From contig OX579637.1 in NCBI GenBank assembly GCA_951230915.1, positions 32,674,001 through 32,738,000 on the forward strand: DNA of 64,000 nt. The letters run 5' to 3'. This DNA comes from Antitrichia curtipendula. Taxonomy: Eukaryota; Streptophyta; Bryopsida; Hypnales; Leucodontaceae. The notes under the pieces are model-generated. The model was not told the DNA's origin, did no database searches, and was given only the letters and a program-made list of their open reading frames with translations. A program made the translations under genes and the position numbers. Shown here piece after piece: positions 1 through 62,744 of this stretch. The stretch's first letter is position 1. Each line of letters starts with the position of its first letter.

Positions 1-3000
1 TCATCACAGTCGCGATTTGCGTTGTTGTCATCTTTGTCGTCTACACCATCAAAATCAAACAGATCTTCGACAGCATCTGAGGTCTGATAGCCCTCGACCT
101 CGGAATTTTCATTTCAAAGCTCGGTGACTATTCTTCCACGTCCACGATATCTGGGCACAAACCTCTTGTGTCGTTTCACAGCAGGGTTTGTGCCATCAGC
201 CTCTACAGCCAGTCCTCTTCGACCTCTGGAAATCACAAATGGTGTGGTCGTCAAAGTGGGGTCCGGAGTGTCCGTTCAGGTGAACGGTTCTATTAGCACT
301 CCATGGCGTCTCACTCCTATTCCCCGGATAGGGTTTGTAGGGGGGGTTGACGATGATGCTCTGCTAGTGTTCTTTCCTCCGCGAGAACCACGAGAACGTG
401 ACACATATTCACCCATGGCGGGGTCACAAGGGATTTGAGGGGGTCTTCCACCTCTAGTAGTATTCGAAATGTTCTCCACCGTCACTTCAGCATTCCCTAT
501 AGAGCCTAATCCTTCTCCAAAATGTATGGAGGTAGGATTTGGAGTTCTAGTAGCAGATGGAATAGACCGTTGCACCTCTCGGCCTCGTCCATGACCAATT
601 ATAGGAGCCGCAAAAGAACGCGGGAGCGCAACACTAAATTGTGTTTGAAGAATGTCATCATATTCCACACGCTCAGGGTCAAAACGCCTCCCAAAACTAA
701 TGTGCCGTTCATTTGTTGCATCTATACGAGCCATTCTCGTACCTCCAATGTTTGTAGCATGGTGCCTTGTTTCAGATATATTGTCACCGGCTTGGCCTCC
801 CACCCCGCCAAGTCTCCTACTACCGTTGCCATTATGGGCAGACCCATCATTATTTTGAGTTGTACGATTCCCCAAATTCCCTCCATTCCCATCATTGGAG
901 TCGTCTCTATTCCCTCCATTGTTTCCTGGACGGGGATGATCGTTGTTGTTGTCATCGTCGGAGGGGGGATCATCATTGCCAGGAATTGCTGCATTGGCTT
1001 CTTCACCCTCAGAAGAAGAAGAGATTTGTTGACCAGCATACGCTCCACCAACGCCTTCGTTTGGAACAGGAGGAGGTGAAAGGTTGCGGCGAGGACCGGG
1101 CCCCCAATGATTTTCAGGAATATTGTCATCGAGATCTGGTCCAACCCCGTAGTAATTCCTCGCTTCCTCAAGGTGATCGGCCCCTTCTCCCCACAAATCT
1201 ACATTTGCCTGGAATGGCGCAGGGGCCCTAGGCATTTCCATCTCTTTGTCTTCCGCATCTTCTGCTTGCATTGCAGCAAATGCTCGATTAGGTTCGTTCA
1301 CCGGGACGGGGCCAAGAGCATTTGGATCGGAATCCTCCGAGAGCACATTTACGTCATACCAACGAACTGGATCGGCCCCTGGTCTCTAACAAAGGACACG
1401 GCTATTGTATAGATGTATACCAAAGCTTTGGCCTTATCCACTGTCAAGCGATTTCTGCTCCTGTCGTGGACAAAGGAATACATACTCCAATTCCTTTCAC
1501 AAGACAATGCCGAACATGTAAGGGATAGAACACGCTCTGCTATTTTGGACAAGGCCCGATCTGCGATCCGGTGCCACCATTGGTGGGGAAGCAAACTGCT
1601 CTCACGAATGTTGGGTGTTTCGTCAGGACTGTATGGTCCAGTACTCTCTTCGTATTCAGTTAGTTCCTCCATGACGACATCAAAACGCACACCCACCACA
1701 TCTTTTAATTTGTGGACAACCCGATACAATGCACGCAGCGTAGTTCCGTCTTCTTTAAGCTGCGGATGGTCCTTGATGTATGGATTCAACAACGCACCTG
1801 CATAGTGAAGATCAGTAAATCCGAATTTCCATCTTTTTTTGAAGGGTATCTCCAACTCGTTAGCTAAGACGTCGGGTAGGTTGAAGGGTGGCTCTCTCAG
1901 TGAAAACACGTGTGCCCTCAAATTGTGCATTGTAAGCCACGCCTTGCCCATGGCTGGTTCTCGGCCATCAAACACACGCAAGGCCTTCAGCACGTCTTCC
2001 ACTATGAACACATAATCTCTGCATCGTTGCCAAAAACCCAGCTCTCTAATAGTGTGGACCACAGAGCCTGCGATGGTAGCCGATTGCGGACCATTTGGTA
2101 CATCCCGTAACCCCGCCATGTAATTCTGAACACGTGGGTGTAGTATCAAGGCCTCCAGTGCAGTCCTCAATAGAACCAACCGTTGCATCATCAGGAAGTT
2201 ACAAGCAAAGCGGGTTTCGGCAGGCACTAAGAGCTGCTTGTTTGGACTCAACTCACGAAAAGTGGACATTGTTGCATGATGGGCCCTAATGTATTGGCAC
2301 AGGTATTTTGCCCGAGCAATTAAGTTCTTGAAACCGTGGAGTTTGGTCCAATCTTCCAACAACAAATCTAGTGTTTGCGCCATACAACCCTACTTGAAGA
2401 TATGTGGGTACGTGGAAATGACATCCTTCATTGCTCCAAGCATGTTTTTGGCGTTGTCTGTACAAATTTGGGTTACATATTTGGGACCCACCTTGTCGAT
2501 GAAGGCTTTCACTTCGTCTGCTATGTACGTCATGGTCTTCAGTTGCCCAGACGTGTCTATGGATCCCAAAAACACATCACTAGTGGGACAAGACATCATG
2601 ACGTTCATTAGGGGCCGACGATTGACGTTGTCCCAACCATCAGTGCATAGCGTGACCCCATAATTCTTTACAGCAAAGGCCGTTTTTGCTTTGATCTCGT
2701 TCTCGATTTGCAATCTCTTGGGTTCAATCAAATGGGTCCTGAACTGATGGTACGAAGGTGGACTGTATTCAAAGCGCGATACAGAGGTTGCCCTCACCGC
2801 CGCGATGAATGCTGGATTCCTCGCCACATTGAATGGCACATTTGCTTCATAGAAAAAACTTGCCCACTTTTCATCCAAGTCCTTCCTCTTTGCCATATTC
2901 ATAGCATCCTCCATGCGTTGTTGACGTACTGGTCCAGATCTTGTTGAATTTGAAGCAGCGCGGCTCATAGATCGTTGCGGAGGCTCAAATGATTCGGATG

Positions 3001-3358
3001 GATGACTACCATTTGTCTGCCCTCCCCCCGTTACTTCATTTTGAGTGGACTGGCTTGAACTCGCTATGGGACCAACTATGCTTGGAGCGATCGGATCTGA
3101 CTGCATGCCTTCCACGTTTTCAACCATCATTTGTTGAGGAACAAAGTTTGCACAGTTGGCAAATCGATGCCGCACAGCCCGAGGCATTTGGGGACACAAA
3201 GATTTATCCGACTTGTTTTTGAACCCAAAATGCGCAAAAGCCCGCTCACGTTTGTAGCTAAATGTGTTGTTGCAGAAGAGGCAAGTCACTTTACTTCCAT
3301 CATCTGAAAAATCGTATCATGGTTCCCACTCCCTCGTTTGTTTTCGTAAGATACCCAT
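1..3358 (-). pseudogene. hAT-A: hAT-like transposase pseudogene (BED / DUF659-like / hATC + acidic tail), runs off left edge
   Basis: Reads leftward from an ATG at 3358 (MGILRKQTREWEP), which matches the starts of the two sister copies. A BED-like finger follows (CLFC, then H and a later C), then a linker, a DDE core with TDGWDN and CTDNAKNM, DLLLEDW, and the hAT dimerisation motif SCERNWSMYSFVHDRSRNRL. A long low-complexity acidic C-tail continues beyond base 1. In-frame stops are TGA 3317-3319 (WEPW to WEP*), TAG 2390-2392 (sister copies have FQGC), TGA 276-278 and TGA 114-116. One base is missing near 1377-1380, where RWY..VLSEDS continues in another frame. All four stops can be C-to-T changes. 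By family knowledge hAT proteins are cut-and-paste transposases; this copy should encode no full protein unless read through. It is divergent from RING-1, with a GC-rich array between them. The family call is firm; exon structure was not tested. Confidence 0.85.
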
Positions 3359-3599
3359 TACAGCCCCGGATAAGTGCAAAATAGGATGTTTCAACAAGGG
3401 TTCAGGATTCTTCAATGTCTTCAAGGAATACGTGCCAGTAACAACTGTTAGCGCCAATCGTCCACTTGAACTGATTTTGACATCACCTCAGCAAAAAACC
3501 GGAGCAGTCCTCCACCCACTATCTCAATCAACCCAGGAACTCAAAATGAACACCTGGAAAGAGGCACGGGTGGAAGACAAAGGGCCTCTTGCTGCCCCC

Positions 3600-3835
3600 T
3601 CTACTTTTATACAATATCGTTGTAGTGGCGGGGACCTAGTCAGTACAGGCGGGGACTTGTCGCATGGGCGCGAACGTTGTTGGGCTTGGGCGCGGACGCA
3701 AACAGTCCGGGCGCGGACGCGAGAAGGTCAGGTTTGGACGCAGGGCATGGGCGGGGACGTTGTCGTGGAAGTCCGCGCCCGGACACATTGCCGGGCGGGG
3801 ACGTCCGCGCCCGAACAGTTTCACTGGGCGAGAAC
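3600..3835 (-). promoter_or_regulatory. TATA box plus GGGCGCGGACG array between hAT-A and RING-1
   Basis: About eight irregular copies of GGGCGNGGACG or its reverse complement lie at 3625-3835. On the minus strand they are followed by GTATAAAAG at about 3604-3612, roughly 250 bp before the hAT-A ATG. RING-1 starts 250 bp to the right on the plus strand, so the array could serve both genes. Only a weak TATA-like CCATAAGTA (about 3867) precedes RING-1. The array and TATA are visible; promoter function is inferred from the same layout at the other genes. Confidence 0.55.
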
Positions 3836-4086
3836 AGAGTGCGCTTTTCGTGTGCGCGCTAGGGCCCATAAGTACCCGCCCAGTCTGGGTACATTCCCCA
3901 ATGCCGACCGGTCAGCCCTGAAATCGTGGAATTCGCTCTAGAGCTCCATGTTGGAGCTTTAGACCTCAGCATTGCAATCAGGACTCGTCACGTCCATTTC
4001 ACTACTTCCTTCCTTCCAATTAAAAACAATTGCACTATTCCGTAGTTGAGATTTGTTCTTAGCATGCGCTAAAATCTTGATGCAGT

Positions 4087-5163
4087 ATGTCCCAATCTAG
4101 TCAGGGCACGGTAAATGAAACGGTTGATGTTCTTTGTACTATAAGGCCTCGTGATAAGGGGAGGGCTCGCAATTGCAAAGCATCCAAAAAGCGCTTGCAT
4201 ATTCTATTTGATTCAAATAAGCTAGCCTTTGCTGGTTGGGAAACCGAACCACAACCTTGGACCAAAAAAACTTGTGACAAATACATTGATTGGTGTCACA
4301 TAGATAAAGTATTTCCACACAGTGAGCACAAAAAACACTGCAAGCGCAGTGTAGCCAACCTGCACTATTGCAAGGACCCAAAGTTCCTTGAAAGATGCAT
4401 CCAAGTACATCAGCACCAATATCGCACCGTGTATGTAAATAGGAACGAATGTAGCCTTGCCATCTTGCGTATGGTGTATGTAGAGCAGAAACTAATTCGT
4501 CGTGTAGATTGGTCTACGATATAGACTGCTTCAACACAAATTGTGAAAGCTCCAAAGAGCATTGAGATTCCACATGAACGGAAGTATAGCTATGGGGGCC
4601 TGTCTAAGGCAAAATATGCTATAGAACACACTGCAGATGAGTTGGTACAATGGTCCGAAGATTCAGATGTTGACCTCAAATCTGGATGCACAAAGGAGGA
4701 GAGGGATGAAATATTGCTTAATCTAAGAGACACTCAACTTCAGTCTTATTATGAGTCTTTGGTTTCATCAGAGAGCACTGAAGGTGTTCATATCGAACAG
4801 GAAGAAACAGAAATTCACAACAACGTTGCTGGATCATCATTTGAACCACTTGAGAATTTGGGAGAACAACTCGCGGTTATTGATAGGTGGAACCAACTTG
4901 AGCAAGGATGTTCAGGAGATGGGACTAAGTTGGAGCCTTCCATGATGACAGAAGGGTTATTACATATGGTGGACGGGGAAACAGGGATGTCCAACCTAGA
5001 CAATGCTTCTTTATTGAAGATTATTGAAGGCCTAAAGGGCAAAGTTTCACAACTTCGTCGAGAGAAGGAGATCATATAAAAAGAGTTCAATATTAAAGAA
5101 GAAAGATACAAAAAGAGGATTGAAGACTTTGAGCATGCCTGCCGCCATATTGATGAAGCTTGA
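4087..5163 (+). pseudogene. RING-1: truncated member of the YIDW-domain / coiled-coil / RING-H2 family
   Basis: The ATG at 4087 opens a frame whose N-terminal domain matches RING-2 and RING-3: KLAFAGWE, PWTKKTCDKYIDWCHIDKVF, then RRVDWST. A TAG at 4522-4524 interrupts the frame, which continues through an acidic linker (ELVQWSEDSDVD) and a predicted coiled coil (LLKIIEGLKGKVSQLRREKE). A TAA at 5077-5079 and a TGA at 5161-5163 follow. The RING-H2 domain of the other two copies is absent, so the gene is 3'-truncated as well as stopped. A TTAA-type element starts 340 bp downstream. The family assignment rests on the shared N-terminal motifs; ubiquitin ligase function cannot be claimed for this copy. 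Confidence 0.75.
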
Positions 5164-5500
5164 CCTCTTTGAATTGACCAATGAACAATGCAGTTCAGGC
5201 GTTAGTAAGATACATTAGGGGCATAGGGGCATTGTATATTTGTTTATATGATAAAACCTAGGACTGTTCATGATCCTAAGATTGTTCATGTATTGATGTG
5301 GAAACATTGTATGCTTTTTGGTTGTAATTTGAAGCTTCAATGACAAGCCCTCTTCTGCAAGTCTAAGATCATAATTGCACCTACAACCTCACGTTGCTTA
5401 TGTTGAGTTTGATGGTCTACAAATGCACTTTTCTCAATTGTATACAACCACAAAGCACAAGATACATAGGTTTAGAAAAGTAACCAAAATTTTGATTGTT
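5164..5500. other. Spacer between RING-1 and a TTAA element
   Basis: AT-rich sequence with the near-repeat GACTGTTCATGATCC / AAGATTGTTCATGTATTG near 5260-5300. No coding signal is seen. It may be the residual 3' UTR of RING-1. Confidence 0.4.
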
Positions 5501-5504
5501 TTAA

Positions 5505-6190
5505 CCCCTAAAGGACCGGACGACCAGTTGTCCCTTCGGGGTACAATTTCGGTGATTGGGTCCGGGCAGATTCCTACTGTCTCAATTTCTAGTAATATTT
5601 TTTGGGATTTTTGGAGGTTGTGTATTTTTGCAAGAGCTTTGTGAAAATATAATTTTTATTTTCATTCATGCCTAGGAGCCAAAATTATGGCATAATAAGC
5701 AAAAATGGAATTTGGCAGGCAAGCCAAAAAAAATCACAAAAAGTCTAACAAATTTGTTCAAATTTTTTGATTCAAAGATTATATTTTTGTCTACATGTGA
5801 CTAATAATGAGAAAGTTATGGACAATCTTAGTTTTTCCGAGCAATGTAAGCATCTTCTCGAAAAAATAACTTGTAGAATTTTATTTTTGAATGCAATTTT
5901 TAGAATTAAAAAAAAAAATTGTTAAATAGGGCTAGATTTTCTTGCTAGAACAATTTCTTTGTTGGGATAATTGTGATTCCATTTCATCTAAAAGCAATTA
6001 ATAATTTAGTATTTTCTTCAATCTTGAACCCAGCTCTGCTTAACAATTAGTTTTTAATGAGTGAAAACTGAAAACTAAGTGCTTTTCTTGCTAATTTCTC
6101 TTGGTACATTCTCAACTCAACTACTTAACATAAATAAGAAAAAAATCAAAATCAATAGTGCAAATAATTTCAACTAAAAAGATTCAAAGC
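5505..6190 (+). mobile_element. piggyBac-like TTAA MITE, left portion only
   Basis: TTAA at 5501-5504 is followed by CCCCTAAAGGACC and by about 690 bp similar to the left and middle of the complete copy at 15674-16595 (TTGTCCC..CGGG, ATTATATTTTTGTCTA, AACTTGTAGAATT). It stops where the 77-bp array begins. No right end is found nearby, so the copy is truncated or was interrupted by array expansion. Confidence 0.65.
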
Positions 6191-6194
6191 CAAA

Positions 6195-6592
6195 TGGCTT
6201 TCGGGAGTATCTGGGCGTGGACGCAGGGGGGCGCGGACTCAAGGAATTCAGAATCACTCCCGGAAACCAAAATGGCTTGCGGGAGTGTCCGGGCGCGAAC
6301 GCATGGGGCGCGGACTCAAGGAATTCAGAATCACTCCCGGAAACCAAAATGGCTTGCGGGAGTGTCCGGGCGCGAACGCATGGGGCGCGGACTCAAGGAA
6401 TTCAGAATCACTCTCGGAAGCCATTTGGGTTCCGGGAGTGTCCGGGCGCGGACGCATGGGGCGCGGACTCAAGGAATTGAGAATCACTCCCGGAAACCAA
6501 AATGGCTTGCGGGAGTGTCCGGGCGCGGACGCAAGGATTTTGAGGCGCGGACTTACGGACTAGCGGGGACTCAAGGGCGTGGACTCAGGTGA
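6195..6592. repeat. 77-bp tandem repeat array containing GGGCGCGGACT
   Basis: About 4.5 copies of a 77/76-bp unit. The element GACTCAAGGAATTCAGAATC recurs at 6236, 6313, 6390 and 6466. Each unit holds two GGGCGCGGAC-like cores plus CTCCCGGAAACCAAAATGGC. No array-type gene follows it. The open frames across it are products of the repeat. Confidence 0.9.
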
Positions 6593-6845
6593 ACAGCACC
6601 TTCGCTGTGACTTTGACTTTGACATGGGATTCTTCCTCTCCATTCAATGTGGATTGCATTTATTTGTTGCACTTTGCCTCTCATTTCTACTCCCTTGTTT
6701 GTATGATTAAATACGCAAATGAATAAAGTACACCTACTCCACTTTCCAAAGGAATTCAAGGGGAAATTATACTATAATGGCCAACAATACATGTGTTGTT
6801 TTTTCATAAGCACTTGCTAATGGAATTGTTGAATTAAAATTATGA
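6593..6845. repeat. 250-bp module, copy 1 (downstream of array)
   Basis: From GACATGGGATTCTTCCTCT to GAATTAAAATTATGAA the sequence is repeated, with substitutions and small indels, at 8345-8585. Both copies sit directly after a GGACG-type array. No conserved reading frame is evident. It may be a noncoding transcript, an old promoter-proximal region or a mobile-element end. Confidence 0.75.
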
Positions 6846-7240
6846 AACACACGGATTTCCGATTTCTAGCCATTGCCTTCATATTGTTCAATTTTTAGGA
6901 AATAGTACTCTATTCCTTTTCAAACAGTTATTCATTTCATTGTTGAATTTGGAAAGAGAGAACTAAAACAATGGCTCTATTAACATTGTTTGGAGCAAAG
7001 GATTTTATTCCTTAATGAACTTTTATCCATTTCATTGTTGGAGTTCGGTTATCGCGAATAATTTTGTAATTGTCGGAATTAGCGAGAAGGGTTGGGTGGC
7101 GAAGCACTTCTATCTTTATTAATTTAATTATCTCTTTCGGCGTGGCACAAGTGTGTTCCCACAAGGCTTTGAAAATTTCATTGTCGGAAATTGCAAGAGA
7201 GGTTTGGTGGACAAGCACTTCTACCAATTTTTTTAATCTT
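6846..7240. other. AT-rich spacer with short internal duplications
   Basis: Segments around 7065-7120 and 7180-7225 resemble each other and 7625-7675 (GGTTTGGTGGA.AAGCA(C/T)TTC). This suggests an old ~115-bp repeat flanking the 62-bp minisatellite. No gene is seen. Confidence 0.4.
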
Positions 7241-7590
7241 CAATGGTAGCCACTCCCAATGATGAAAATCTTAATCACTCCCTCCCGGTTCCACTCTCTC
7301 CCCATTTTTTTTTATCTTTAAGGGTAGCCACTTCAAATGATAAAAATCGTAATCACTCCTTCCCCATTTTTTTTTATCTTTAAGGGTAGCCACTTCAAAT
7401 GATAAAAATCGTAATCACTCCCTCCCCATTTTTTTTATCTTTAAGGGTAGCCACTTCAAATGATAAAAATCGTAATCACTCCCTCCCTATTTTTTTTTTA
7501 TCTTTAAGGGTAGCCACTTCAAATGATAAAAATCGTAATCACTCCCTTCCTATTTTTTTTTATCTTTAGGGGAATAAGGGTAGCCACTGC
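7241..7590. repeat. 61-63-bp minisatellite
   Basis: About five copies of a unit with AGGGTAGCCACTTCAAATGA, then TAAAAATCGTAATCACTCC and a poly-T run. AGGGTAGCC starts at 7321, 7383, 7444 and 7507. Central copies are almost identical; the edge copies (7241 and 7577) are diverged. Confidence 0.9.
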
Positions 7591-7964
7591 CAATGTGGTT
7601 TCACCGTGAGGCCTTGGAAATGCTATTGTAAGAGTTGGCAAGAACTCAAGAAGGATTCGGTGGAGAAGCATTTCCACCCTTATTAATTTTTTTCCTTTCA
7701 GCGTAGTGTTGTAACAAGGCTTAAAAGTTTAATTCTCTAGATAAGCAAACATGGATAACATATCATTAAAACATCATTGAACGATATGGACATATATTTT
7801 TAGAAGCGGAATAGGAAAGACATATAGAGGTAGTTACTCCAGTAATTTAAGTAATCAAGGACGTTAGGATTTATGGTTTTCAGGGTTTTAGGGTATTAGG
7901 TTTACTGGTTTAGGGTTTGGAAATGGGTTTCAGCTGAACGTCTAGGGTATGGTTTCTGAAAGTG
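7591..7964. other. Spacer ending in telomere-like TTTAGGG variants
   Basis: No gene is seen. Around 7868-7920 there are several TTTAGGG-like units (GGTTTTCAGGGTTTTAGGG, GGTTTAGGGTTTGG) immediately before the next array. Confidence 0.5.
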
Positions 7965-8345
7965 TTTGGGCGCGGACGCATGGCAGGGACTCAATGCTGG
8001 GCGTGAACCTTGGGGCGGGGACGTAATTCCCTGTCGCGTCTGTTGCGCGCGGGCGTGGACTCCTGGGCGCGGACGGAGGAAGGGCGAGGACTCATGGGCG
8101 CGGACGGAGTACCGGGCGGGGACGAAATTCCCTGTCGCGTCTGTTGCGCGCGGGCGTGGACTCTTGGGCGCGGACGGAGGAAGGGCGAAGACTCATGGGC
8201 GCGGACGGAGGACCGAGCGGGGACATAATTCCCTGTCGCGTCTGTTGCGCGCGGGCGTGGACTCCTCGGCACGGACGGAGGAAGGGCGAGGACTCATGGG
8301 CGCGGACTTACGTCCGAGCGGGGATTGAAGGGCGAGGACTTAGGG
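7965..8345. repeat. 101-bp tandem repeat array containing GGGCGNGGACG
   Basis: Three copies of a 101-bp unit. CTGTCGCGTCTGTTGCGCGC recurs at 8031, 8132 and 8233. Each unit contains four GGGCGNGGAC-type cores. Like the array at 6195-6592 it is followed by the 250-bp module rather than a gene. The long open frames across it are compositional. Confidence 0.9.
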
Positions 8346-8585
8346 AAACAGCATAATGGACTTCGGCATGGGATTCTTCCTCTATAGTCAATTGCAGTTT
8401 TTTGTACTTTGCCTCTCATTTATGCTTCCTAGTTTGTATGATTAAATACCCAAATGGAGAAGTTCACCTACTCCACTTTCCAAAGGAGTTGAAGGGGAGA
8501 TTATATTTTCATGGCCAACAATACATGTGTTGTTTTTCCACAAGCACTTGCTAATGGAATTGTTGAATTAAAATTATGAACCACT
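8345..8585. repeat. 250-bp module, copy 2 (downstream of array)
   Basis: Partner of 6593-6845. They share CATGGGATTCTTCCTCT, CTACTCCACTTTCCAAAGGA and CAAGCACTTGCTAATGGAAT. Similarity ends near 8585. Confidence 0.75.
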
Positions 8586-9086
8586 CATAATGGATTTTTC
8601 AATGGCCGCGCTCACAAGTTTTGACATTTTTTATACTTCTTCTTGTACTGCTATATTTCAAGATGGCAAAATCCTAATATTAGATATGCAATCATACAAT
8701 TTTGGATGTCATGTACAGATTGCAATTGAAGTAATGGTCCAAGAGAAAATATCATCTTTTATTTATGGTTTGTTATAAGTCTTTTTTTTTTCCCCATATC
8801 AATTTATCCATTTCATTTTAGACGGTATGGAAACTCTTGTTTACCGGGTAATGTCTGCATGTTCTTTAAAAAACAACTCACAAATTTCTGAATTAAAATT
8901 TTTTTTTAAGGAAAGGTTCATTTGGAACTTGGAGGGACAGTCTTACCATTGGGATTATGGTGTCTCAATTGTATGTATTCAATTTTTGTTAACACATTTT
9001 TTTGTTTCATTCAAATCTTACTATCTTAGACCTACTTTGACTTCTGAATTTCTGGATGAAAACATGTCCACAATGGTGGTGCTTAT
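8586..9086. other. AT-rich spacer
   Basis: Two short open frames (8590-8778, 8827-9090) lack recognisable motifs and have AT-driven composition. I see no supported feature. Confidence 0.3.
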
Positions 9087-9090
9087 TTAA

Positions 9091-9650
9091 CCCCTAAAGG
9101 CCCAAGGCCAATTTTCTGGCAAAAACTACTCAAAACTGCCATTAATATAGCAAAGAGCCCAAAAAAAAATTTAATGTGTTTTTTGCATATTTTACCATAG
9201 GATCTTATACTAAACTAGTGTAAGAATGTGTGGAAGAAATTTTAGAAACTTTGACCAAGTAGATTACAATATATTTGCATTTAAAGTGAAGGAATCAAAT
9301 TTTTTCGCACCTCGTTCAACTACATTTTTGGGCTTTCAACCTTTTTAACTTAAAATTTTTGCTCCAATGATTTTGAATTTCAAATTTTATATGTTGAAGA
9401 ATTGAGTTTAGAATCTAGGAAGAAAAATTGAAAAAAGAAACACTTAGTTTTCACTCATTCAAAATTTGTTAAGTAGAAGTACGTTTAAGATTGAAGGAAA
9501 AATGAAATCATTAATAGCTGTAAGATAGGGTTGAAATATACTAATCTCAACGGTGAGATTGTTCTAGCAAGAAATCTTAACCTTGTGCAGCTTTTTTTTT
9601 TTTTTAATTGTCAAAATTGAGTTCAGAAATGAATCCTACAAGTTATTTTT
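9091..9650 (-). mobile_element. piggyBac-like TTAA MITE, reversed, truncated by a GC-rich island
   Basis: TTAA at 9087-9090 plus CCCCTAAAGGCCCAAGGCC starts a reversed copy. AAAACTGCCATT, GATCTTATACTA and GCATTTAAAGTGAA match the inverted right half of 15674-16595. It ends near 9650 at the GC-rich island, so its left end is missing. Confidence 0.65.
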
Positions 9651-9651
9651 A

Positions 9652-10325: not shown

Positions 10326-10451
10326 ATGGCTGCCACTCGCGGTTACGCCGTGCCCGGTGCAATGTGGGCCAAGTGTGTGACCAATTTCCATTCCGAAGGT
10401 CGCTGTTTCGTCTTCCTGGAGCGAAAATCCATTCGCAATTTTGTCCTGCAG
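10326..10451 (+). CDS. Candidate first coding exon of an unidentified gene
   Basis: The ATG at 10326 lies in good GC-rich context (CAAATGGC) and opens 42 codons (MAATRGYAVPGAMWAK...IRNFVLQ) ending in CAG at a plausible phase-0 donor, CAG|GTCAGT. I do not recognise the protein. A longer frame begins upstream at 10188 without a stop, so the start is uncertain. No following exon is identified with confidence; an open stretch at 10886-11095 is a possibility. TTAGGGTTTAAG elements in the presumed intron resemble the telo-boxes common near plant housekeeping genes. Confidence 0.3.
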
Positions 10452-12335: not shown

Positions 12336-12339
12336 TTAA

Positions 12340-49504: not shown

Positions 49505-49549
49505 CAGGGTTGTCTATCCGGACGTGACGTGGGCTTTTCACGTCCGAAT

Positions 49550-53343: not shown

Positions 53344-53473
53344 ATGTTTTTGAAAAGACAATAGGGTCTTCATGTTTTCAAATGCAATGGTTTTAGCAGC
53401 TCAATACCTTGCATATTGAAATCAGCATTAATATGAAATATGACTTTTGTTCCTTTCATTCTCATAGAACTGT

Positions 53474-53790
53474 TTACCCCTAAAGTCCCGAAGTCATTAC
53501 ACAAAAAAAACGCAAAATTATCTTTTCTCTTGCATTTGCCTCAACATACGGAAAAAATGTTTTTTACAACATCTAACCGTAAGATCTTATACTTCACATG
53601 TTTTTTATCACGTGGTAAAAATTTCATGAAGTTTGACCGAATAGATTGAAAGACATTAGCATTCAAACTTGGAAAAACTAGTTTTCTGAATGCTAGCTTT
53701 GCAATTTCAGATTAACTTTCACTGAGTGTGATTTATGGAAAATTGGGCCTTCGGGGCACTATTGTTTTTGAATTATTTTTTTGAATATTC
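53474..53790 (-). mobile_element. Partial TTAA MITE, subfamily 1-like, reversed
   Basis: TTTACCCCTAAAGTCCCGAAG followed by AAGATCTTATACTTCAC, CACGTGGTAAAAATTTCATG, GTTTGACCGAATAGATTG and AAAGACATTAGCATTC. The same words occur in 63008-63300. It lies 130 bp after the hAT-C stop. Confidence 0.55.
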
Positions 53791-54670
53791 AAGAATTGAG
53801 GTCAAAATTTGAAAGAATTATTGCAATTGGAAACTACGTTTGCAATCCAAATAACACAGTGTGGTGTTTTTTTCATGTATGTTTTCTTTTTTTCAAATTT
53901 CATTAAAATTAAAATTATAAAACTATGTTTTGTGTTCATTCATTCATTTATGGCCCCAGTTTCAGATTATTCTCATACATATTATAATTGATAAAATTTG
54001 GTTTCCATGTTTAGCTTTATAAAATCACAATAAAATCAATTTTCCATTGAATTTTCTGGAAAAAAAAAGCATAAATAGAAAATGAATTCTTACGTATGTT
54101 GAAAAATATTAAAATATTATGCTGATTTTCAATAAAAATATAAATTTGGTTTGATAGTCAAATTTGACTTCAAGCTTTTCTTTGTGGTTGTTTACTAGTT
54201 TTGGGCATGAAAAATTAAATAAACAATTGAAAATTTTTCTGACTAGAAATTTCTATTGATATTTGTACCTCTTGTAAAAAACTAAAAAATTTAGAATCTC
54301 TTGATTTGTTTTTTCTATTTTTACTTATTTATGGCATGAAGTGCAACAAAAATGTTGACAATTACAATTTTGCACAAAACTAATTGAAATTTCTTGTAGT
54401 GATATACAATTCAAAGTTTTTAGTACTAAAGATATAAGATGTGTGTTTACACGCAATTTAAATGATAAAGTTAGGGAAGACAAGAAATTTTTTACAACTC
54501 AATGTTTAGGTAAAATACGTTTATAACTTTATATAAACCAAAATGAATACAAAATGCATTGAAGCCACAAAGTGTGCTACATTGCTATGGATGTCCTCAA
54601 GCCCATACTATAATAACCGCATGTACTAAGTGAACACTAATTTTGCAACTATATGGTAATACACTATTAT
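53791..54670. other. AT-rich spacer between hAT-C and KIN-2
   Basis: No coding signal recognised. Confidence 0.3.
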
Positions 54671-56332
54671 CTAATCTTCATTGCACGCCTGCTCTTCTTG
54701 AAGGTCTTGTTCTTTGCGGGCCTCGCGGTAGCAATCCATGGGTGGTGTCCAAAACGTTGGAGCACCACTTAGACGTTGCATGACTCCAGTCACCGAGCGT
54801 CGTTGTAGTGGCTCTGCCTTGCACAATTCACCCAACATGGTTTGAAACGTACCAAATGCCATAAGGTCCGGAATCATATCTACATTTCCGCGATCTTTTT
54901 TCCATACCTTCATAGCCAATTTCCCTATGGAGTATCCGTCCGTGTGTATACTAACACACGGTGGCTTAACCCTGCGAGTAGGAGATGATGAAGTTCCTGT
55001 CTCTCCAATCAAGTACATCAACTCAGGAGCTACCCACCAACGTTGCGCTCGGGTTGCCTGAAACTTCCTTGGACAATTGAATTGGTAAAGAGAAGGGGTT
55101 TCTTCGTTGATGCGGCTACCCATTCCCCAATCACATAGACCAATCCACACGGTTCTTCCATCATCATTTGGAAAATGAAGCATAATGTTCTCCGGTGTGA
55201 TGTCATTGTGCAATACAGAGCACTGTTGCACTGCATCCACAATGCAAATCATCGCCCACGCAAGTTCAGTGCGCTTGCGTCTATATGCCATGAGTCGTTT
55301 GGCTTCTTGCATTGATTGGGGAGTTGCATGGTAAGCCAACTCCCCAATTTCATCTGGATCTCGGTTCTTCTCATCAAGGGTAAACATGGCGCCGAGAGTA
55401 CCGCCATTCCACCATTGCGAATAACACTCCATGGTCATGTCATTTATAGCAAAGAATTTGATGACCCTTGGATGCTCGTACGGACATACCAATGCCTCGA
55501 TGGACAACTTCTCCCTGGACTTCTTCAATTCATCCACGCGCAAGGCTGACTTCCCAGCTAATTCCATATTCTCGGGAATATGTTTTGAATTTTGAACACA
55601 TACTTTGCGCACCCTCCCATGCCTCCCTTGTTTGCTATGGCCAGACAAAGGAACCACCACCACTCCTCTTTCAAGGAAAACCACTCCTCCTGCAGCTTGT
55701 TGACCAAAGGCCAAGTTCTGACTTCGTTGAAACCATGGAGCGGAACGGATGTTGCTTGAAGATAATCCACGCACTGCATCATGCCACCAATACACCTTCT
55801 TGTGCAACAAACTCAATGCTTGTTGTCTGGGCACTACACTCTTCTCAAAGCCTTTTATTTTTTCCGCAACTTAGGCAAGGTTGAAGATACACGTTTGCAC
55901 TTGTGACTCCAACCAATGATCGAAGCATTCTTTCGTGCGGTCTTCATGCCACTCATCCGCGCTCATTGTTGTCCAGAACATGTGGTGGAACTTTTGTTTA
56001 ATTTTATCCACTCCCTGTAATCCGCATGAGACGTATGTTGAGTTCAACTGCAAAATCGAATACTGATCAAAAAATTCCAACGCCACTTCATGCAGTTTGC
56101 GCGTTGCACCCTTGCTTGGCCACTTCTCCGGATTTGTAGCCTTGTGCCTCCTTCGTTGTTTTTTCTTCCCCTTCGAAGACTCTCCGCCCCCCACAGCAGC
56201 TACAGACCCTTTTGCAGCTACGGCCTCTGAAACGGGCTCTGGTGATTCCGCATCCGGGTCCATAACCGGTGCATCTCCAACACCTGTCCACCAATCATCA
56301 ACCTTTCTCTTCGAGAAATCGCGACCAACCAT
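54671..56332 (-). pseudogene. KIN-2: protein-kinase-like gene with one in-frame stop
   Basis: ATG 56332 (MVGRDFSKRKVDDWWTGVGD), Ala/Glu linker, basic KGKKKQRRRHK, then an N-terminal domain (NPEKWPSKGATRKLHEVALE) shared with KIN-1. TAA 55871-55873 follows FNLA and the frame continues VAEKIKGFEKSVV without shift; CAA-to-TAA would explain it. Kinase features: GRVRKVCV, LAGKSAL Lys, YSQWWNGGTL hinge-like segment, VLHNDITPENIML catalytic loop (His, Asp and Asn kept; the usual Arg is Asn), LCDWGMG (Asp kept) and VAPELMY. All residues needed for phosphotransfer appear present, so an active kinase is plausible if the stop is absent in other copies. A GTG in frame at 55834 is not a likely start. It is divergent from RING-3. 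Confidence 0.75.
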
Positions 56333-56530
56333 CGTGACAGTAACAAGTAACAAATAATCAAAATCAAAGGAATTAGGAATTCGTCTTCCACAAAGTGAAA
56401 AACCGCCCCCCTTATTCCTCAAAACAGCCTCTACCCAGCACCCACGCTCGCAAGCAAAGACTGCAACCAATCCAAGACAAGAGAGCACCGTCAGAGCAGG
56501 AGAGACTGTGGCGAAAGTACCCTAAAAACA

Positions 56531-57150
56531 GTCTTATATACCCATTTCACGTGGCCGGGGTGAACTGACCTCCTCGCTCGGCCCTCCGGGCCGACCCTGT
56601 TTTCCGCACCATTCCTTTTTTGCAAATTTTGAGTTCATAAAGACCCCTAATTAGTTCAATCACATCAAATAATAACCCTGGATCGGCCGAAAATAGAGGG
56701 CTTTTTTTTACATGCACCCCTGGTAAAGCCGAACGAGGGGGTCAATCCACCCCAATCATTCACGTCGACGGACAGGCCGTCGAGAGGACGGACAGAGCGT
56801 CCAGAGGACGGGAAGGCCGTCCAGAGGGACAAGCCGTCCAGGGGCCAAGCCGTCCAGCCCGCGGACTGGCCGTCGAGAGGACAAAGAGGCCGTCCAGGGG
56901 TGGAGACCGTCCAGCCCGCGGACTAGCCGTCGAGAGGACGGAAAGGCCGTCCACGGGGGGAGACCGTCCAACCTGCGGTTTTAGGCCTGAGGACGGGAAG
57001 GCCGTCCAGCCCGCGGACTGGCCGTCTAGGGGGCCAAGCCGTCCAGCCCGCGAACTGGCCGTCGAGAGGACGGGAAGACTTTCGAGAGACGGGAAGGCCG
57101 TCGAGAGGACGGGAAGGCCGTCGAGAGGGCGGGAAGGTCGTCGAGCGGGC
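56531..57150 (-). promoter_or_regulatory. KIN-2 promoter: TATA box and 20-bp GGACGGGAAGGCCGTCGAGA array
   Basis: The minus strand has GGGTATATAAGAC (56531-56543), about 205 bp before the ATG. About fifteen 20-bp units such as GGACGGGAAGGCCGTCGAGA run from 56762 to 57150; each contains an inverted GACGG..CCGTC. The intervening 56545-56760 is GC-rich without repeats. The unit is closely related to that of RING-3. Confidence 0.65.
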
Positions 57151-58551
57151 CATTCAAAACAGTGCTGGCCGAGTGTAACTCATTTCTAATCCTTGTTCGG
57201 AGAATTTTTCATTTATGTGGTTTGGCACTCTCGGACTTGTCAGGACAGGTGTCCTCCCTCTCAATCGGGCATTAGACTACGGTGGCGGGTAGTTTAAGAG
57301 TGCTAACTTAATGTTCACACTTGTTTCAATTAGAGGACAAATAAATACCAGAGATGACATTCAAATGCTCAAAAAACAAGGTTTAATGCTCATTTAGAAT
57401 GGAATTATATTTTGTTGCACGTAAATAATGGAAAAAACATAGCAAAAACCATAGAAGGTCAAATTGAAAACTTCTTAATGTCAGTCCTAGAATGTTCTAT
57501 TTGGATGTTCATGTTAATATTTGATTCATTCTAATTGCACCCATTTTCACAAAAGTTGTTGGCATTGGGCAATGTTTTTTTTACAAAAATCCCAGAATCT
57601 CTCAATTCCTTAAAATAATTTATATTCTGTAGGGCTCAAATTCGAATTCAAATGAATTTTATCAATTATAACTCGAACAATTTCACCTTTGGAATTATTG
57701 TATTTTGATTCCATCCTTCCCTGCATGTAAGTGCACCTGACAATTTAGTATTTTGTTGAATTTTAAACCCTGTCTACACTAATATACTCAACTCAAAGTC
57801 TCAAACGTACAAACATTCAATAACTTACTAAGCTCGGATCAAATATACAAAGACCAAGACAATAAACCACCCTCTAAATGCTCTAGTTAAAGGTAGTAAG
57901 ATTAAAACTCTGAAATGGTTAATTATGAAATAAGTGAAAGACCTCCTAAACAACATATGTCATATGCATATCATTGATTAATGTAAAACATTGTTTTGGC
58001 TTTCCATTCATACATTACAGAAAAAGAATGTAGCCCTATACATCTAAACTTAAGAATGTTTTACCTTCTAAAGATATTGTTATGCCGTTTTTTGGTGTCT
58101 TCAATATGTTTTATAAAACTTTGATTTTAAATCATTAATCTATTTTTTTCCAATTCAAACTTCAAAGACTACATCTCGATCAAGTTTTGCACTTATAATG
58201 CCAACTAAAAAAAGGAAGAACATTTTTCGTGGTTTTCGGTCCATGCTAGGTTTTGAAGTAAATCCTATAGGACAATACCCTAAATCCCAAACCTTAAACC
58301 CTAAACCCTAAACCCTAAACCCTCTTCACTGTTGCAATTTTAAGAGTATTTGATGTTCAAGTTTATGTAACTATAGCAAATAAGAGTGGATTGGTGTAAT
58401 AAAATTGAAATGCAACATTGAGTACATGAGCTTCACATTTTTGTGGTCTCTATATTTTTTTTATGGCTTCTAAACTATAAAGCAACTAACGGTGAATTAT
58501 TATAGTTTTTCATATGGATTGTTTATTAATTGCTTATGTAGTACCGTATGT
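57151..58551. other. AT-rich spacer with telomere-like tract
   Basis: No gene. At about 58283-58322 there is (CCCTAAA)n: AAACCTTAAACCCTAAACCC continuing for four units. This is the reverse orientation to the 50.2-kb tract. Confidence 0.5.
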
Positions 58552-58850
58552 TAACCACTAAACTGACTAAAGTCCCAAGGCCTCTTTTGCATCCTATATC
58601 TGAAATAAATTGCCATTTCTATAGTAAAGAATGTAAAAAAAAAGAATGAATGTGTTTAGGACTTTAGGCCTTTAAGGTGCACATCTACTTGTAGTATGTA
58701 AGATCTCATACTAGAGTACTAGAGTAGTGTTCAATTGACCAGAAGAAATTTCACAAACTTTGCCTATATAGAATTGTAGATTGCAAGATATTTACAATCA
58801 ACTTCAACCTCGGAACGCCCAACGACATCATTTAGTGCCAATTTGATGGC
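58552..58850 (-). mobile_element. Partial decayed TTAA MITE, reversed
   Basis: GTTAACCACTAAA..AAAGTCCCAAGGCCTC, ATTGCCATTTCTATAGTAAAGA and AAGATCTCATACTAGAG match the inverted right half of subfamily 1. The other end is missing. Confidence 0.5.
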
Positions 58851-59689
58851 AATTCAATCACTTCAATGAGATGGAAAGATTGTGGAAGCGTTCAATTCAT
58901 TTTTCGGGGACCTTCCATGTTGAGTTCCAAAGTGTATCCAAATGATTTTGTAGTCTTTCCGATATTTGCCTCCGCGTAATTTAGAGTTTAGGAAAAAAAA
59001 AAAAAAAAAAATGCTACTTTAGTGTATCTTGGGAAGTTGTTGCTCCTTAGTCTAAATCTGAAATTTATCCCCCAAATTGATATTTTCTGAGTTTGAGTCT
59101 AACTATAAGGCAAAAGTTCATTTTCTCTAGTTCCTATTTTATGTAAAATCCCCCAACACGACCCTAAAAATGAAATTTCATTATTGCGATTTGCACTTCG
59201 AATGTGTTTTTAATGTCTACTACATTTAGTACATTCTAAATAAATCATGAAATGGAAATTAAGTTTATGCTATGATCGATTCTAATGTCATTATCCTTGT
59301 GATATAAGGTAAACCTGCCTATGACAGGCAGAATGACTGATTTGTTGTATTGCCTTTAGCAAAAATAATCAAATTTTTTCCATACAAAGACACATGTGAG
59401 AAATGAAGAACGCAACTGGAATTTTATTTTTTGGATTAAATATGATTTTTTAAAAATTTTTGAAGTGTACTGTCCAGTAAGCCCAAAAGAGTTTGTAGAC
59501 TACCCCAAATCAGCAAAAAATTGTTTCCATGATGGTCATCTTCCCACTTAAAACAGTCATAACATTTTCTAAGATGGCTACAAGACTTTCTAACATGGAC
59601 ATGACATGAAGAAATAAAAAAACTGCTTTTTACTAAAAATAAAAAATCAATTTTCAAAAGAATACCCATAAAATTTTTAAAGGGCCGTT
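58851..59689. other. AT-rich spacer
   Basis: No feature recognised apart from a poly-A run at about 58992-59010. Confidence 0.3.
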
Positions 59690-60274
59690 CAGGACATTCA
59701 GCAGGCTGTCAAGAGGATGGGCGGGCCGTTCCTGACCAGGAACAGGCCGTTGAGAGGACGGGCAGGCCGTCCCGACCACGAACAGGCCGTCGAGAGGATG
59801 GGCGGGCCGTTCCCGACCAGTGACAGGCCGTCAAAGAGACGGGCACCCCGTCCTTTTGGACGGCCTTTCCATCCAAGAGACGTGTAGGCTGTCAAAGAGG
59901 ACGGGTATGCCGTCCAGGAGAGGGGTATGCCGTCCAGGAGATGGGTATTCCGTCGAGGGGACGAGCAATCCGTCGAGGGGACGGGTAGGCCGTCGACGGA
60001 ACGGGCAGGCCGTCAAGGGGACGGGCAGACCGCCGAGAGGACGGAAAATCCGTCCGTCCAAGTCTCGGGCGGCGGTGTAATTATTTCCCGAACCTGTCGA
60101 CGGTGCCCCGAACCCGTTGACGGCGTCCCAACCCTGTGTCGGACCTCTATGGACGTATCGGCCGTCCATTCCAGGGCTGTCCCACGCCTTGGACGGTCTG
60201 GATTCGGGGGGGGGACGGGATGATGTTATGTTAATTACCCTGCCTAATCGGGTCGGTAATTGGGGGGTATAAGT
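59690..60274 (+). promoter_or_regulatory. RING-3 promoter: 20-bp GGACGGGTAGGCCGTCGAGG-type array and TATA box
   Basis: 59690-60060 contains about 18 units with GGACGGGCAGGCCGTC-type palindromes; looser CGTCGACGG / CCGTCC words continue to about 60215. GTATAAG at 60268-60274 lies about 210 bp before the ATG. The plus- and minus-strand open frames across the array are repeat products. Confidence 0.65.
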
Positions 60275-60479
60275 AAACTTTTTTGGACAGTTTACGTGCT
60301 TCCTCTTTTGAGTTGCACTGTCCGAGCTTGAGAAAGCTTCGCTCTGTAATTTGAGGGGAAGTGTTATACATTTGACATTGTTTTGCCACATTTCAGTTGC
60401 CTTCACGCAACAGAAGGCAAAGCAAATTGTCATTGTATTCGCATACAGTATCGTGTGTGTCATTTTATAGGTATCAAGA

Positions 60480-62744
60480 ATGGACGTAGAGGATGTAGCA
60501 GGAGGTTCGGGACCTGGAGGTGACCCCCCAGGAGGTTTGGTACCTGCAGGTGAACCCCCAGGTAGAAGGAAGAGAGGAAACAGAGCAACCTTGGATTGGG
60601 GCACACTTAATGCCGAAGAGGTTATGGCAAAGCCTGGGTGGTTGGAGGCAGATGGCCCATGGACAAGAGTGATATGTCGTCAATATATAGATTGGACCCA
60701 CATCAACCGCCATTGGCCACATGACCGGTACGAGGTGCACGTGAAATCTGGCGTGGTAAATATTGACCAGTGCCAACATCCGCACTTCAAGAAGAGGATG
60801 ATTGAAGTATCATTGGTACTTTGGAGGGCAAGATCCAAGAAAGACGGGACACTTTCATTGTGCCAAATGGCATATGCGGAGGTTTTTCTTGGCAAGGATG
60901 TGGACTGGAGCAGCTTTTTGGGCAAATCGCGGAATAATGCATTTCCAAATCGAACTCGCCACATTGCACCAAATCCTACTGTGCCGTTGGACAATGTACC
61001 AAATCTTGCCGTGCCATTGGATGATGTCCAAAATGTGCAAATGGACGTGGTTCCACTGGCAGAACGTCCAGGGACGGAGTTGATGGAGATAGAAGTTGGT
61101 CAGGGCAGCGGTCCAGATGTAAACCAACAAGCTGTGATTGGTGGAGTGCAAGCTGACGGTGAAGAAGTAATTCGCTTGCGCCAATTAGTACAAACACTGC
61201 AAGCAGAAAAAAAAGAAACACGACGACAACATGCTGCAGTGTTAGAAGTTCATCATGCAAGGATGCGGGCCGTTCAAGATGAAAATGTGCGCCTCATCGC
61301 ACGTGAAGCCGAGCTCGTAGAGCGTGAAAGGCGGGTCAGCACAAACTCAGTTCCACCACTCGATCTTGTAGTGGAACGTGCTACATACGGTGCAGACGAA
61401 GACACACCAGGCCCGAGCAATACATCTGAGTTTGTGCTGCGATCACGATCCACTTTTCCAAGTGCAGAAAGTGCCACATTGGATATTATGCGTGCACGTG
61501 CTAAGCGAGTTGAAGCAGAGCTTAGAAGTACTCGCACAAACGTGGAAGAATTAACAAACGCCATGCATGCTTTGGAACTTCGTGCCAACAACGCCGAGGC
61601 CGAGGTGGTGGTGGTTACTGCAGCTAGAATAACCTTGGAGCAGACCATGACCGCATTGAGTGCTGAAAATATGCGGTTGGTTCAAAATCCTCAGATGGAG
61701 CAGAGGCTGCTTCAAATGTGCAACATGAAGTTGACATGCATCTTAGCGCTAAAAGAAGCTGAGCAAATGCAACGTGAAGTGAGGAGAGTGGCTGCAGAAT
61801 TCAATGATGGCGGTCAACGTTATTTTGGCTTGACCTCGTGGCCTCGGGTGGCAGAAATGTTCACCGATGATTTGCCGGCGTATAGGGAGAATTCAAGCAT
61901 CAATTGGAATGCCCGTCCAGACTTGGAATTCCAATATAATATCGATCGCCAACGGTACGGGCCACCCAACAACGATGGCATTACGCCACTAGTGTGGCCT
62001 TTCGTTCCAGATTTTGTAAAAGATGGAACAACATGTATAATGTGCCAACAACCGTTTGGCCCCGAGGGTGGATGGAATCTTGGTACATGTGGCCATCTAT
62101 ACCACCCCGTGTGTCTTATTCCACACATGGTCACCAGAAAGAGATGTGCGCAATGCAGGGCTCCATTTCATGCACGACTGTACAAAACGTTTGGCCTTGA
62201 AGACCACATGCCTCAACATTACGAGTACAATGAAGAAAATTTACCGGGCCCCGGTAATAGAGTACATTGGGGGTCCGACATGACATGGCTTTGGAAGTGG
62301 GGCCACCACAACCGACACCTCCCGGCAGGAACGGTGGCTGACATACCATGGACGAGTGACAACCAAGTGACAGAGGTGATCAGGAGGGTGTTTGGAGACA
62401 GTGATCCAGGGCGTCGACTATATTTTGGTCAGATTGCCGGTGGACATTGGGACCCAGAACGCTCAATTTTTATACGCGCACCACATCCACAACGCATCAT
62501 GTTTAACTCTCAAGGCCAGCCAGTCGGATTTGAGGGGGAATTGAGCTATGAGGAAGAAATGGCGTACATTGAAGACAATACCTTCCATGAGCCAGCCCTC
62601 GTGAATGACATTTTTGGGCACTTACATGATAGATACGATATAGAAGCACTTCAGCTTCTGAGGACTTTCGAATCGCAAGAAGAACTGCAGCAATTTTTGA
62701 GAAATAGCATAGCACGCGGCGTTGTAATCGAAGATGTAGACTAG
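60480..62744 (+). CDS. RING-3: intact YIDW-domain / coiled-coil / RING-H2 protein (754 aa)
   Basis: ATG 60480 to TAG 62744, open throughout and intronless. Residues 1-35 are Gly/Pro-rich with a basic RRKRG. At ~45-150 is the family N-terminal domain (GWLEADGPWTR, CRQYIDWTHINRHWP, KDVDWSSF). ~225-285 and ~340-415 are heptad-rich coiled coils (LRQLVQTLQAEKKETRRQ). RING-H2 at 519-559 has the pattern C-x2-C-x14-C-x-H-x2-H-x2-C-x10-C-x2-C. After it come conserved PFHARLYKTFGL and WGSDMTWLWKWGHH, and an acidic C-terminus. RING-H2 proteins usually act as E3 ubiquitin ligases, so ubiquitination is inferred; the coiled coil suggests oligomerisation. It is the only undamaged member of the three families here, so it is the best reference for the broken copies. 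It shares an intergenic interval with KIN-2. Confidence 0.9.
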   Translation: MDVEDVAGGSGPGGDPPGGLVPAGEPPGRRKRGNRATLDWGTLNAEEVMAKPGWLEADGPWTRVICRQYIDWTHINRHWPHDRYEVHVKSGVVNIDQCQHPHFKKRMIEVSLVLWRARSKKDGTLSLCQMAYAEVFLGKDVDWSSFLGKSRNNAFPNRTRHIAPNPTVPLDNVPNLAVPLDDVQNVQMDVVPLAERPGTELMEIEVGQGSGPDVNQQAVIGGVQADGEEVIRLRQLVQTLQAEKKETRRQHAAVLEVHHARMRAVQDENVRLIAREAELVERERRVSTNSVPPLDLVVERATYGADEDTPGPSNTSEFVLRSRSTFPSAESATLDIMRARAKRVEAELRSTRTNVEELTNAMHALELRANNAEAEVVVVTAARITLEQTMTALSAENMRLVQNPQMEQRLLQMCNMKLTCILALKEAEQMQREVRRVAAEFNDGGQRYFGLTSWPRVAEMFTDDLPAYRENSSINWNARPDLEFQYNIDRQRYGPPNNDGITPLVWPFVPDFVKDGTTCIMCQQPFGPEGGWNLGTCGHLYHPVCLIPHMVTRKRCAQCRAPFHARLYKTFGLEDHMPQHYEYNEENLPGPGNRVHWGSDMTWLWKWGHHNRHLPAGTVADIPWTSDNQVTEVIRRVFGDSDPGRRLYFGQIAGGHWDPERSIFIRAPHPQRIMFNSQGQPVGFEGELSYEEEMAYIEDNTFHEPALVNDIFGHLHDRYDIEALQLLRTFESQEELQQFLRNSIARGVVIEDVD

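What the first reader, a model, noticed from the sequence alone, without database searches (positions are those of the whole stretch)
1..62744. Three unrelated gene families (hAT-like, RING-H2, kinase) share one promoter architecture
Seven of eight copies have: GC-rich tandem array with GGACG core, then a TATA-like box, then a 130-250 bp leader, then ATG. The TATA contexts of RING-2 (GACTATATAAGTCCCTGC) and KIN-1 (GACTATATAATCCCTGCA) are almost identical although the proteins are unrelated. Seen directly: the layout and motifs. Inferred: the genes are one co-regulated or co-mobilised set, perhaps with the BED-finger protein binding the arrays, as Ac transposase binds clustered subterminal AAACGG repeats. 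I know of no described element with this three-gene content.
Basis: partly seen in the sequence, partly recalled or inferred. Interest (0 to 1): 0.9.

Follow-up and report, generated by a model that had tools for sequence, protein, structure and literature searches.

The report
Three-gene hAT transposons with motif arrays
The three gene families are the contents of large jumping genes of the hAT kind, each carrying a transposase, a kinase and a RING-finger protein, with the same short DNA motif repeated at both ends and in front of the genes; it is a more elaborate transposon than I found described.

Summary
The pattern is real, but what explains it is shared membership of transposons, not a shared host promoter. 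The hAT, kinase (KIN) and RING genes lie together inside large hAT-type DNA transposons. Element A starts at window 49505 and runs 16,127 bp, past the window end. Element B (25,756 bp) starts left of the window and ends at 24169. Both have CAGGGTTGTC ends and exact 8-bp target duplications; 12 of 12 A copies with both ends found have matching 8-mers, 11 exact. A-type ends occur about 600 times. Gene order is hAT-KIN-RING in 33 of 33 A copies; related families keep the trio in other orders. Motif arrays stand at both ends and before the genes, and 26 of 28 sampled array clusters lie in A copies. A and B use different motif versions. So 'co-mobilised' is supported; co-regulation and array binding by the transposase are inference. 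A strict TATA box is present in 5 of 8 genes. The window's hAT-2 belongs to another hAT family without shown kinase/RING partners. Filed as a new variant of the hAT superfamily, resembling Arabidopsis VANDAL elements in logic, not ancestry.

The parts
49505..64000 (+). Element A, 16,127 bp, C5:32723505-32739631; its last 1,631 bp lie beyond the window (read in L061)
   Evidence: left end, right end and 8-bp duplication CCTCCCAT on both sides
49497..49504 (.). Target duplication CCTCCCAT at the left of A
49505..49514 (+). A terminal inverted repeat CAGGGTTGTC (10 bp identical at the two ends)
49688..50046 (.). A left subterminal array, also directly upstream of hAT-3
   Evidence: TGGACGG/CCGTCCA 12 in 49601-50100
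50339..53343 (+). hAT-3: transposase gene of A, read as two frames (50339-51748, 51838-53343); broken here by a deletion of about 0.18 kb relative to other copies
   Evidence: DUF659 and Dimer_Tnp_hAT; deletion
54671..56488 (-). KIN-2: kinase gene of A, read as two frames (54671-55834, 55871-56488)
   Evidence: Pkinase 35.4 bits, cut-off 31.7; catalytic residues invariant
56767..57145 (.). Array upstream of KIN-2
   Evidence: also in 2 of 2 other copies fetched
59702..60055 (.). Array upstream of RING-3
   Evidence: present upstream of RING in 30 of 30 fetched copies
60480..62744 (+). RING-3: coiled-coil RING-H2 protein of A, 754 aa
   Evidence: zf-RING_2 22.1 bits, below the 27.3 cut-off; all eight C/H ligands invariant in 5 sequences
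1..24169 (-). Element B, 25,756 bp, C5:32672414-32698169; its first 1,587 bp lie left of the window (L080, L081)
   Evidence: TTTTCAGG beside both ends; ends share 18 of the first 19 bp
24151..24169 (-). B terminal inverted repeat
24170..24177 (.). Target duplication TTTTCAGG of B
   Evidence: found again at C5:32672406-32672413
276..3358 (-). hAT-1: transposase gene of B
   Evidence: 39-45% identical to hAT-3 in its two main stretches
3601..3860 (.). Motif cluster upstream of hAT-1 (GCGNGGAC 8)
4087..5160 (+). RING-family fragment inside the span of B
   Evidence: 29% to RING-3 over 4105-4521
6192..6533 (.). B-type array, no gene assigned
8013..8307 (.). B-type array, no gene assigned
17238..19298 (-). 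RING-2: RING gene of B, in two frames
   Evidence: 28.6% to RING-3; zf-RING_2 below cut-off
19453..19617 (.). Array upstream of RING-2
21189..21308 (.). Array upstream of KIN-1
21548..23228 (+). KIN-1: kinase gene of B, in several frames
   Evidence: 31.6-32.5% to KIN-2
23693..24011 (.). B subterminal array

Best explanation
The window holds two large multi-gene hAT DNA transposons, A and B. Each carries a DUF659-type hAT transposase gene, a divergent protein-kinase gene and a coiled-coil RING-H2 gene (probably a ubiquitin ligase). Shown here: ends, 8-bp target duplications, high copy number of A-type ends, fixed gene content, motif arrays at both ends and before the genes, family-specific motif versions, and short derivatives of 0.25-0.5 kb that keep the ends. 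Inferred: the subterminal arrays are binding sites of the element's own transposase, as AAACGG repeats are for Ac. The same or another element protein also reads the arrays before the genes, so that each family recognises and controls its own promoters, possibly against host silencing, as VANC does in VANDAL elements. The kinase and RING protein would adjust the transposase or the host silencing machinery; this last step is the weakest.
For: Left ends 620 (up to 3 mismatches; reversed-pattern control 0) and right ends 587 (up to 2; control 4). 8-bp duplication in 12 of 12 A copies with both ends found, 11 exact, 1 with one mismatch, in B and in 4 of 4 short derivatives. Gene linkage: RING-KIN 47 of 59, RING-hAT 36 of 59, hAT-KIN 65 of 91 within 20 kb; order hAT(+)KIN(-)RING(+) in 33 of 33. 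Other families: RING with KIN 102 of 116; hAT with either partner 98 of 117, random mean 3.3, maximum 9 of 200 trials. Array confined to the element in 26 of 28 clusters, A and B dialects distinct. Paired A ends are 253-496 bp (17 of 39) or at least 15.7 kb (22 of 39), none between. Catalytic residues of the kinase invariant in 14 sequences, RING ligands in 5.
Against: No binding, expression or silencing data. The hAT-2 family lacks shown partners. One of 13 tested A copies had no right end at the predicted place; TSD copies had been chosen for having a listed right end. dN/dS among copies is only mildly below 1 (hAT N-half 0.60, RING 0.75), which does not prove that RING is needed. 44 of 59 RING hits contain stops (my count); the window's own hAT-3 is broken. 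Arrays before KIN were looked at in 3 copies only.
Confidence: 0.93

Rival explanations
1. The arrays serve transposition only. Those inside the element are left over from fused or nested smaller elements (or spread by gene conversion) and do not regulate the genes.
For: Short derivatives keep ends and 6-12 motifs, so end-proximal motifs are enough to travel; B contains two arrays without assigned genes (6192-6533, 8013-8307).
Against: An array stands upstream of hAT and of RING in 30 of 30 fetched A copies each and of all three genes in both families, with the family's own motif version; gene bodies of A have few motifs (7 and 6).
Confidence: 0.35
2. Kinase and RING are captured host passengers without function for the element.
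For: Gene capture by plant transposons is known (PMC13317346, passage); dN/dS for RING 0.75 is weak; many copies carry stops.
Against: The trio is linked in families whose proteins are down to about 30% identical and in at least three gene arrangements; catalytic and zinc residues are kept.
Confidence: 0.15
3. Host gene families with a common promoter type, co-regulated but not mobile.
For: Shared motifs and similar TATA contexts.
Against: Exact termini with target duplications, about 600 dispersed A-type ends, short derivatives.
Confidence: 0.01

Closest known systems
Ac/Ds and other hAT elements
   Same: CAGGG ends, 8-bp duplication, hAT transposase, subterminal clusters of a short motif (AAACGG in Ac: PMC3260210, passages), short non-autonomous derivatives.
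   Different: Ac is 4.6 kb (same paper) and one-gene (recalled). Here 16-26 kb with kinase and RING genes, and arrays also before internal genes.
VANDAL elements with VANC anti-silencing proteins (Arabidopsis)
   Same: Multi-gene DNA transposons whose non-coding parts hold tandem copies of a short motif that differs between related families (PMC5735166 passages; PMC10398659 abstract).
   Different: VANDALs are Mutator-like elements with VANA/VANB/VANC genes (MULE class recalled). Here a hAT transposase, 8-bp duplication, kinase and RING; no anti-silencing shown.
En/Spm (CACTA) with TnpA
   Same: Subterminal repeats beside the promoter read by an element protein (recalled, no call).
   Different: Ends and duplication length differ (CACTA, 3 bp; recalled).
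CGG-binding proteins derived from hAT transposases
   Same: hAT BED/Hermes DNA-binding domains often prefer CGG or CGC, and motifs of four hAT proteins match subterminal regions (PMC8097297, abstract and passages); the arrays here are CGG-rich.
   Different: Domesticated or one-gene animal and fungal elements; binding here is untested.

Membership tests
hAT superfamily | 8-bp target duplication | tested here: met
   A: 12 of 12 with both ends found, 11 exact; B exact; short forms 4 of 4
hAT superfamily | short terminal inverted repeats of the CAGGG type | tested here: met
   10 bp in A, 18 of 19 in B; that CAGGG is typical of hAT is recalled
hAT superfamily | hAT transposase domains | tested here: met
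   DUF659 136.6 bits, Dimer_Tnp_hAT 37.2 bits, both above cut-off
hAT superfamily | catalytic D-D-E triad | tested here: inconclusive
   candidate DGWDN, TDN and SSCERNWS read by eye in the translation; no structural or profile test
hAT superfamily | N-terminal zinc-finger (BED) domain | tested here: inconclusive
   C..C....H pattern by eye; no zf-BED match in Pfam
VANDAL/MULE | 9-bp duplication and MULE transposase (recalled) | tested here: not met
   8-bp duplication, hAT domains
VANDAL/VANC-type anti-silencing | element protein binds the motif arrays and removes silencing | not testable with these tools
   arrays present and family-specific; no binding or methylation data
CACTA (En/Spm) | CACTA ends and 3-bp duplication (recalled) | tested here: not met
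Protein kinases | kinase domain with catalytic lysine, HxD aspartate, asparagine and DxG aspartate | tested here: met
   Pfam above cut-off; K95, H209-D211, N216, D235 and G237 invariant in 14 sequences; activity not tested
RING-H2 proteins | eight C3H2C3 zinc ligands | tested here: met
   C519, C522, C537, H539, H542, C545, C556, C559 invariant in 5 sequences; Pfam score below cut-off

The most novel reading that the evidence does not exclude
A lineage of giant hAT elements has kept, through divergence to about 30% protein identity and through changes of gene order, a transposase + kinase + RING-ligase trio and a self-addressing code: each family has its own motif, repeated at both ends and before its genes, and read by the element's own DNA-binding protein to activate and de-silence only its own kin, while kinase and ligase act on host silencing or on the transposase. 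This would be a second, independent invention of VANDAL-type sequence-specific anti-silencing, in hAT elements.
Probability: 0.3. Interest if true: 0.85.

Novelty: new variant of a known kind. Interest (0 to 1): 0.62.

Why it matters
hAT elements are usually thought of as one-gene transposons (recalled). Here two hAT elements, and by gene linkage further families, carry a kinase and a RING gene and mark genes and ends with a family-specific motif. This makes testable whether plant DNA transposons other than VANDALs evolved their own regulatory or anti-silencing code, and what a transposon uses a kinase and a ubiquitin ligase for. It also matters for annotation: many kinase, RING and hAT gene models in such a genome would be transposon genes.

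Tried and rejected
Viral or prokaryotic source of the accessory genes: scans of viral contigs with RING and with the kinase alignment, and of prokaryote genome contigs with the kinase alignment, gave no relative by tblastn; these scans look for a few short peptide patterns only. Relatives came from a database of predicted proteins without organism names: 4 for RING, 41-67% identical, and 23 for KIN, 31-87%. Solved structure related to the kinase by sequence: none at E 0.01. RING structure model: mean pLDDT 46.5, so no fold search was made.

Species: not identified. A plant is likely from the CCCTAAA-type repeat (58277-58323); a moss is only a guess from genome size, and the genome papers listed did not settle it.

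hAT-2 as a third three-gene element: not supported (no other RING or kinase stretch near it by tblastn).

Left end of B inside the window: not found (no pair listed); it lies outside.

Literature: (search listings, open-access PMC papers only) showed no described hAT element with kinase and RING genes. Subscription papers and repeat libraries were not searchable, so absence from print is not established.

Sampling limits: protein listings of the genome search are the best scored candidates (59, 91, 107, 150, 116, 117 and 126 of 1173-2451 first-look candidates); pattern listings show only the first 100 places; length pairing used 90 left and 84 right exact-match places on C1-C3; the 28 array clusters are those of the first 100 of 546 matches.
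Full report
WHERE. The species was not identified; a plant is likely.

OBSERVATION. All eight genes counted have the GGACG-type motif upstream, 4 to 29 within 1.2 kb; a strict TATA box within 600 bp is present in 5 of 8; the two quoted TATA contexts are exact. The layout is real; the 'seven of eight' figure is not reproduced for the TATA box.

ELEMENT A. Genome searches with the RING, hAT (N-half) and KIN proteins listed 59, 91 and 107 hits at 91-100% identity; these lists are lower bounds. Within 20 kb, RING has KIN in 47 of 59, RING has hAT in 36 of 59, hAT has KIN in 65 of 91, nearly all at one spacing and orientation. The left terminus CAGGGTTGTC was located in 29 of 30 fetched hAT loci, with different sequence to its left. 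The right end was read 2.9 kb beyond the RING gene of the window copy, and CCTCCCAT stands outside both ends. I then tested 11 further copies that had both a fetched left flank and a listed right end, and one sister copy with a predicted right end. Of these 13 in all, 12 showed both ends, and all 12 have matching 8-mers (11 exact, 1 with one mismatch); the sister copy's right end was not at the predicted place. Element A is 16,127 bp: hAT(+) KIN(-) RING(+).

COPY NUMBER AND SHORT FORMS. Left ends: 620 matches with up to 3 mismatches, reversed control 0. Right ends: 587 with up to 2, control 4. Pairing 90 left and 84 right listed places on C1-C3 gave 39 pairs: 17 of 253-496 bp, 15 of 15.7-18.3 kb, 7 from 18.5 to 32.4 kb, none between 0.6 and 14 kb. 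Four of four fetched short forms have exact 8-bp duplications and 6 to 12 motifs.

ELEMENT B. CAACCCTG at 24162-24169 is followed by TTTTCAGG. If this is an end, TTTTCAGG before CAGGGTTG should mark the other end. It stands at C5:32672406, outside an array to the left of the window. Element B is 25,756 bp and its ends agree in 18 of the first 19 bp. It contains KIN-1, RING-2 and hAT-1. Identity to A proteins: RING 28.6%, KIN 31.6-32.5%, hAT 39.3-44.6% in the main stretches. Its hAT-RING distance is 16.0 kb against 7.3-14.1 kb in 12 sister copies, 8 of them 10.3-11.8 kb, so it probably holds insertions; the RING fragment (4087-5160) and two arrays without assigned gene lie in that part.

OTHER FAMILIES. 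Searches with KIN-1 (150 hits), RING-2 (116) and hAT-1 (117) list further families at about 55-73% identity. RING has KIN within 15 kb in 102 of 116, KIN has RING in 102 of 150. hAT has RING within 30 kb in 75, KIN in 88, either in 98 and both in 65 of 117; random placement gives a mean of 3.3 and a maximum of 9 for 'either' in 200 trials. Orders among those 65: KIN(+)RING(+)hAT(+) 40, KIN(-)RING(+)hAT(+) 23, two others once each; A is hAT(+)KIN(-)RING(+) in 33 of 33. The trio is kept while its order changes. Ends were verified for A and B only. Against generality: of the hAT-2 family 17 of 126 listed copies lie near a listed KIN or RING hit (random mean 4.5, maximum 9 of 50 trials), and no RING or kinase stretch was found near hAT-2 in the window other than those of A and B.

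ARRAYS. In fetched A copies the array precedes hAT in 30 of 30 (16-42 motifs) and RING in 30 of 30 (10-27); 29 flanks outside hold 9 motifs in 21,545 bp. KIN arrays are present in the window copy and in 2 of 2 others fetched. A pattern for the right array matched 546 times, reversed control 0. Of 28 clusters among the first listed places, 18 stand at a listed A right end and 26 at such an end or within 25 kb of an A gene; 2 had neither in the incomplete lists. Motif versions: three A arrays hold 25 TGGACGG/CCGTCCA and no GCGNGGAC, the A right array 31 and 0; six B-side arrays hold 57 GCGNGGAC and 1 TGGACGG, the far end of B 9 and 0; hAT-2 has 2 TGGACGG and 0 GCGNGGAC. The shared architecture follows element membership.

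PROTEINS. hAT: DUF659 and Dimer_Tnp_hAT above cut-off; KIN: Pkinase 35.4 bits against a cut-off of 31.7; RING: zf-RING_2 22.1 against 27.3, below cut-off. Kinase lysine, HND, asparagine and DWG aspartate are invariant in 14 sequences; all eight RING ligands in 5. dN/dS among 30 copies each: hAT N-half 0.60 (below 1 in 395 of 429 pairs), RING 0.75 (346 of 430); neutral decay after insertion pushes both towards 1. By my count, 15 of 59 RING hits have no stop inside.

RECENT ACTIVITY. A sister of the window's A copy lies inverted, its RING gene end 20.2 kb away. It is 99.96% identical over 5.3 kb around RING and 97.9% around hAT, shows the same break in hAT, and has a different left flank. This suggests a recent move with transposase from another copy; its missing right end keeps this unproven.

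HOW IT MAY WORK. Clusters of AAACGG near the ends bind Ac transposase (PMC3260210, passages), and hAT DNA-binding domains often prefer CGG or CGC (PMC8097297, abstract and passages); the arrays fit both. VANC proteins bind short motifs that form tandem repeats in non-coding parts of VANDAL elements, differ between related families, and cause loss of silencing (PMC5735166 passages; PMC10398659 abstract). I propose that these hAT elements use their arrays in both ways. The roles of the kinase and the RING protein are inference only.

VERDICT. hAT membership is firm by duplications, ends and domains. The trio and the family-specific motif arrays are what is new in my searches: a new variant of a known kind.

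Noticed in passing
window 44121-47594 (hAT-2): A further hAT family, not generally linked to listed kinase/RING genes. 33 of its 126 listed copies lie on contig C5 (37.2 of 400 Mb), against 4 of 59, 6 of 91, 7 of 107, 5 of 150, 6 of 116 and 7 of 117 for the other six protein lists. C5 could be a special (sex or gene-poor) chromosome; not tested.
   Followed up: partly
window 25398-27346: DUF7869 gene 1.2 kb outside the end of element B; possibly another mobile element.
   Followed up: no
window 58277-58323: 6.7 copies of the CCCTAAA telomere-type repeat inside element A, between KIN-2 and RING-3.
   Followed up: no
L061:1658-3031 (minus) and L073: Directly beyond the right end of A lies another RING-family gene (22.8% identical), and L073 holds a kinase-like stretch (by eye): more element families of this kind stand nearby.
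   Followed up: no
C8:23628990/23647248, C2:8081416/8111595, C4:12774402/12805732, C1:21570385/21599755: Several hit pairs with identical scores lie inverted to each other 18-31 kb apart, like the sister copy of element A: either a preference of the transposition or duplication process, or assembly artefacts.
   Followed up: no
window 6192-6533, 8013-8307 and 7292-7572: Two B-type arrays and a 62-bp tandem repeat without an assigned gene within the span of B.
   Followed up: no
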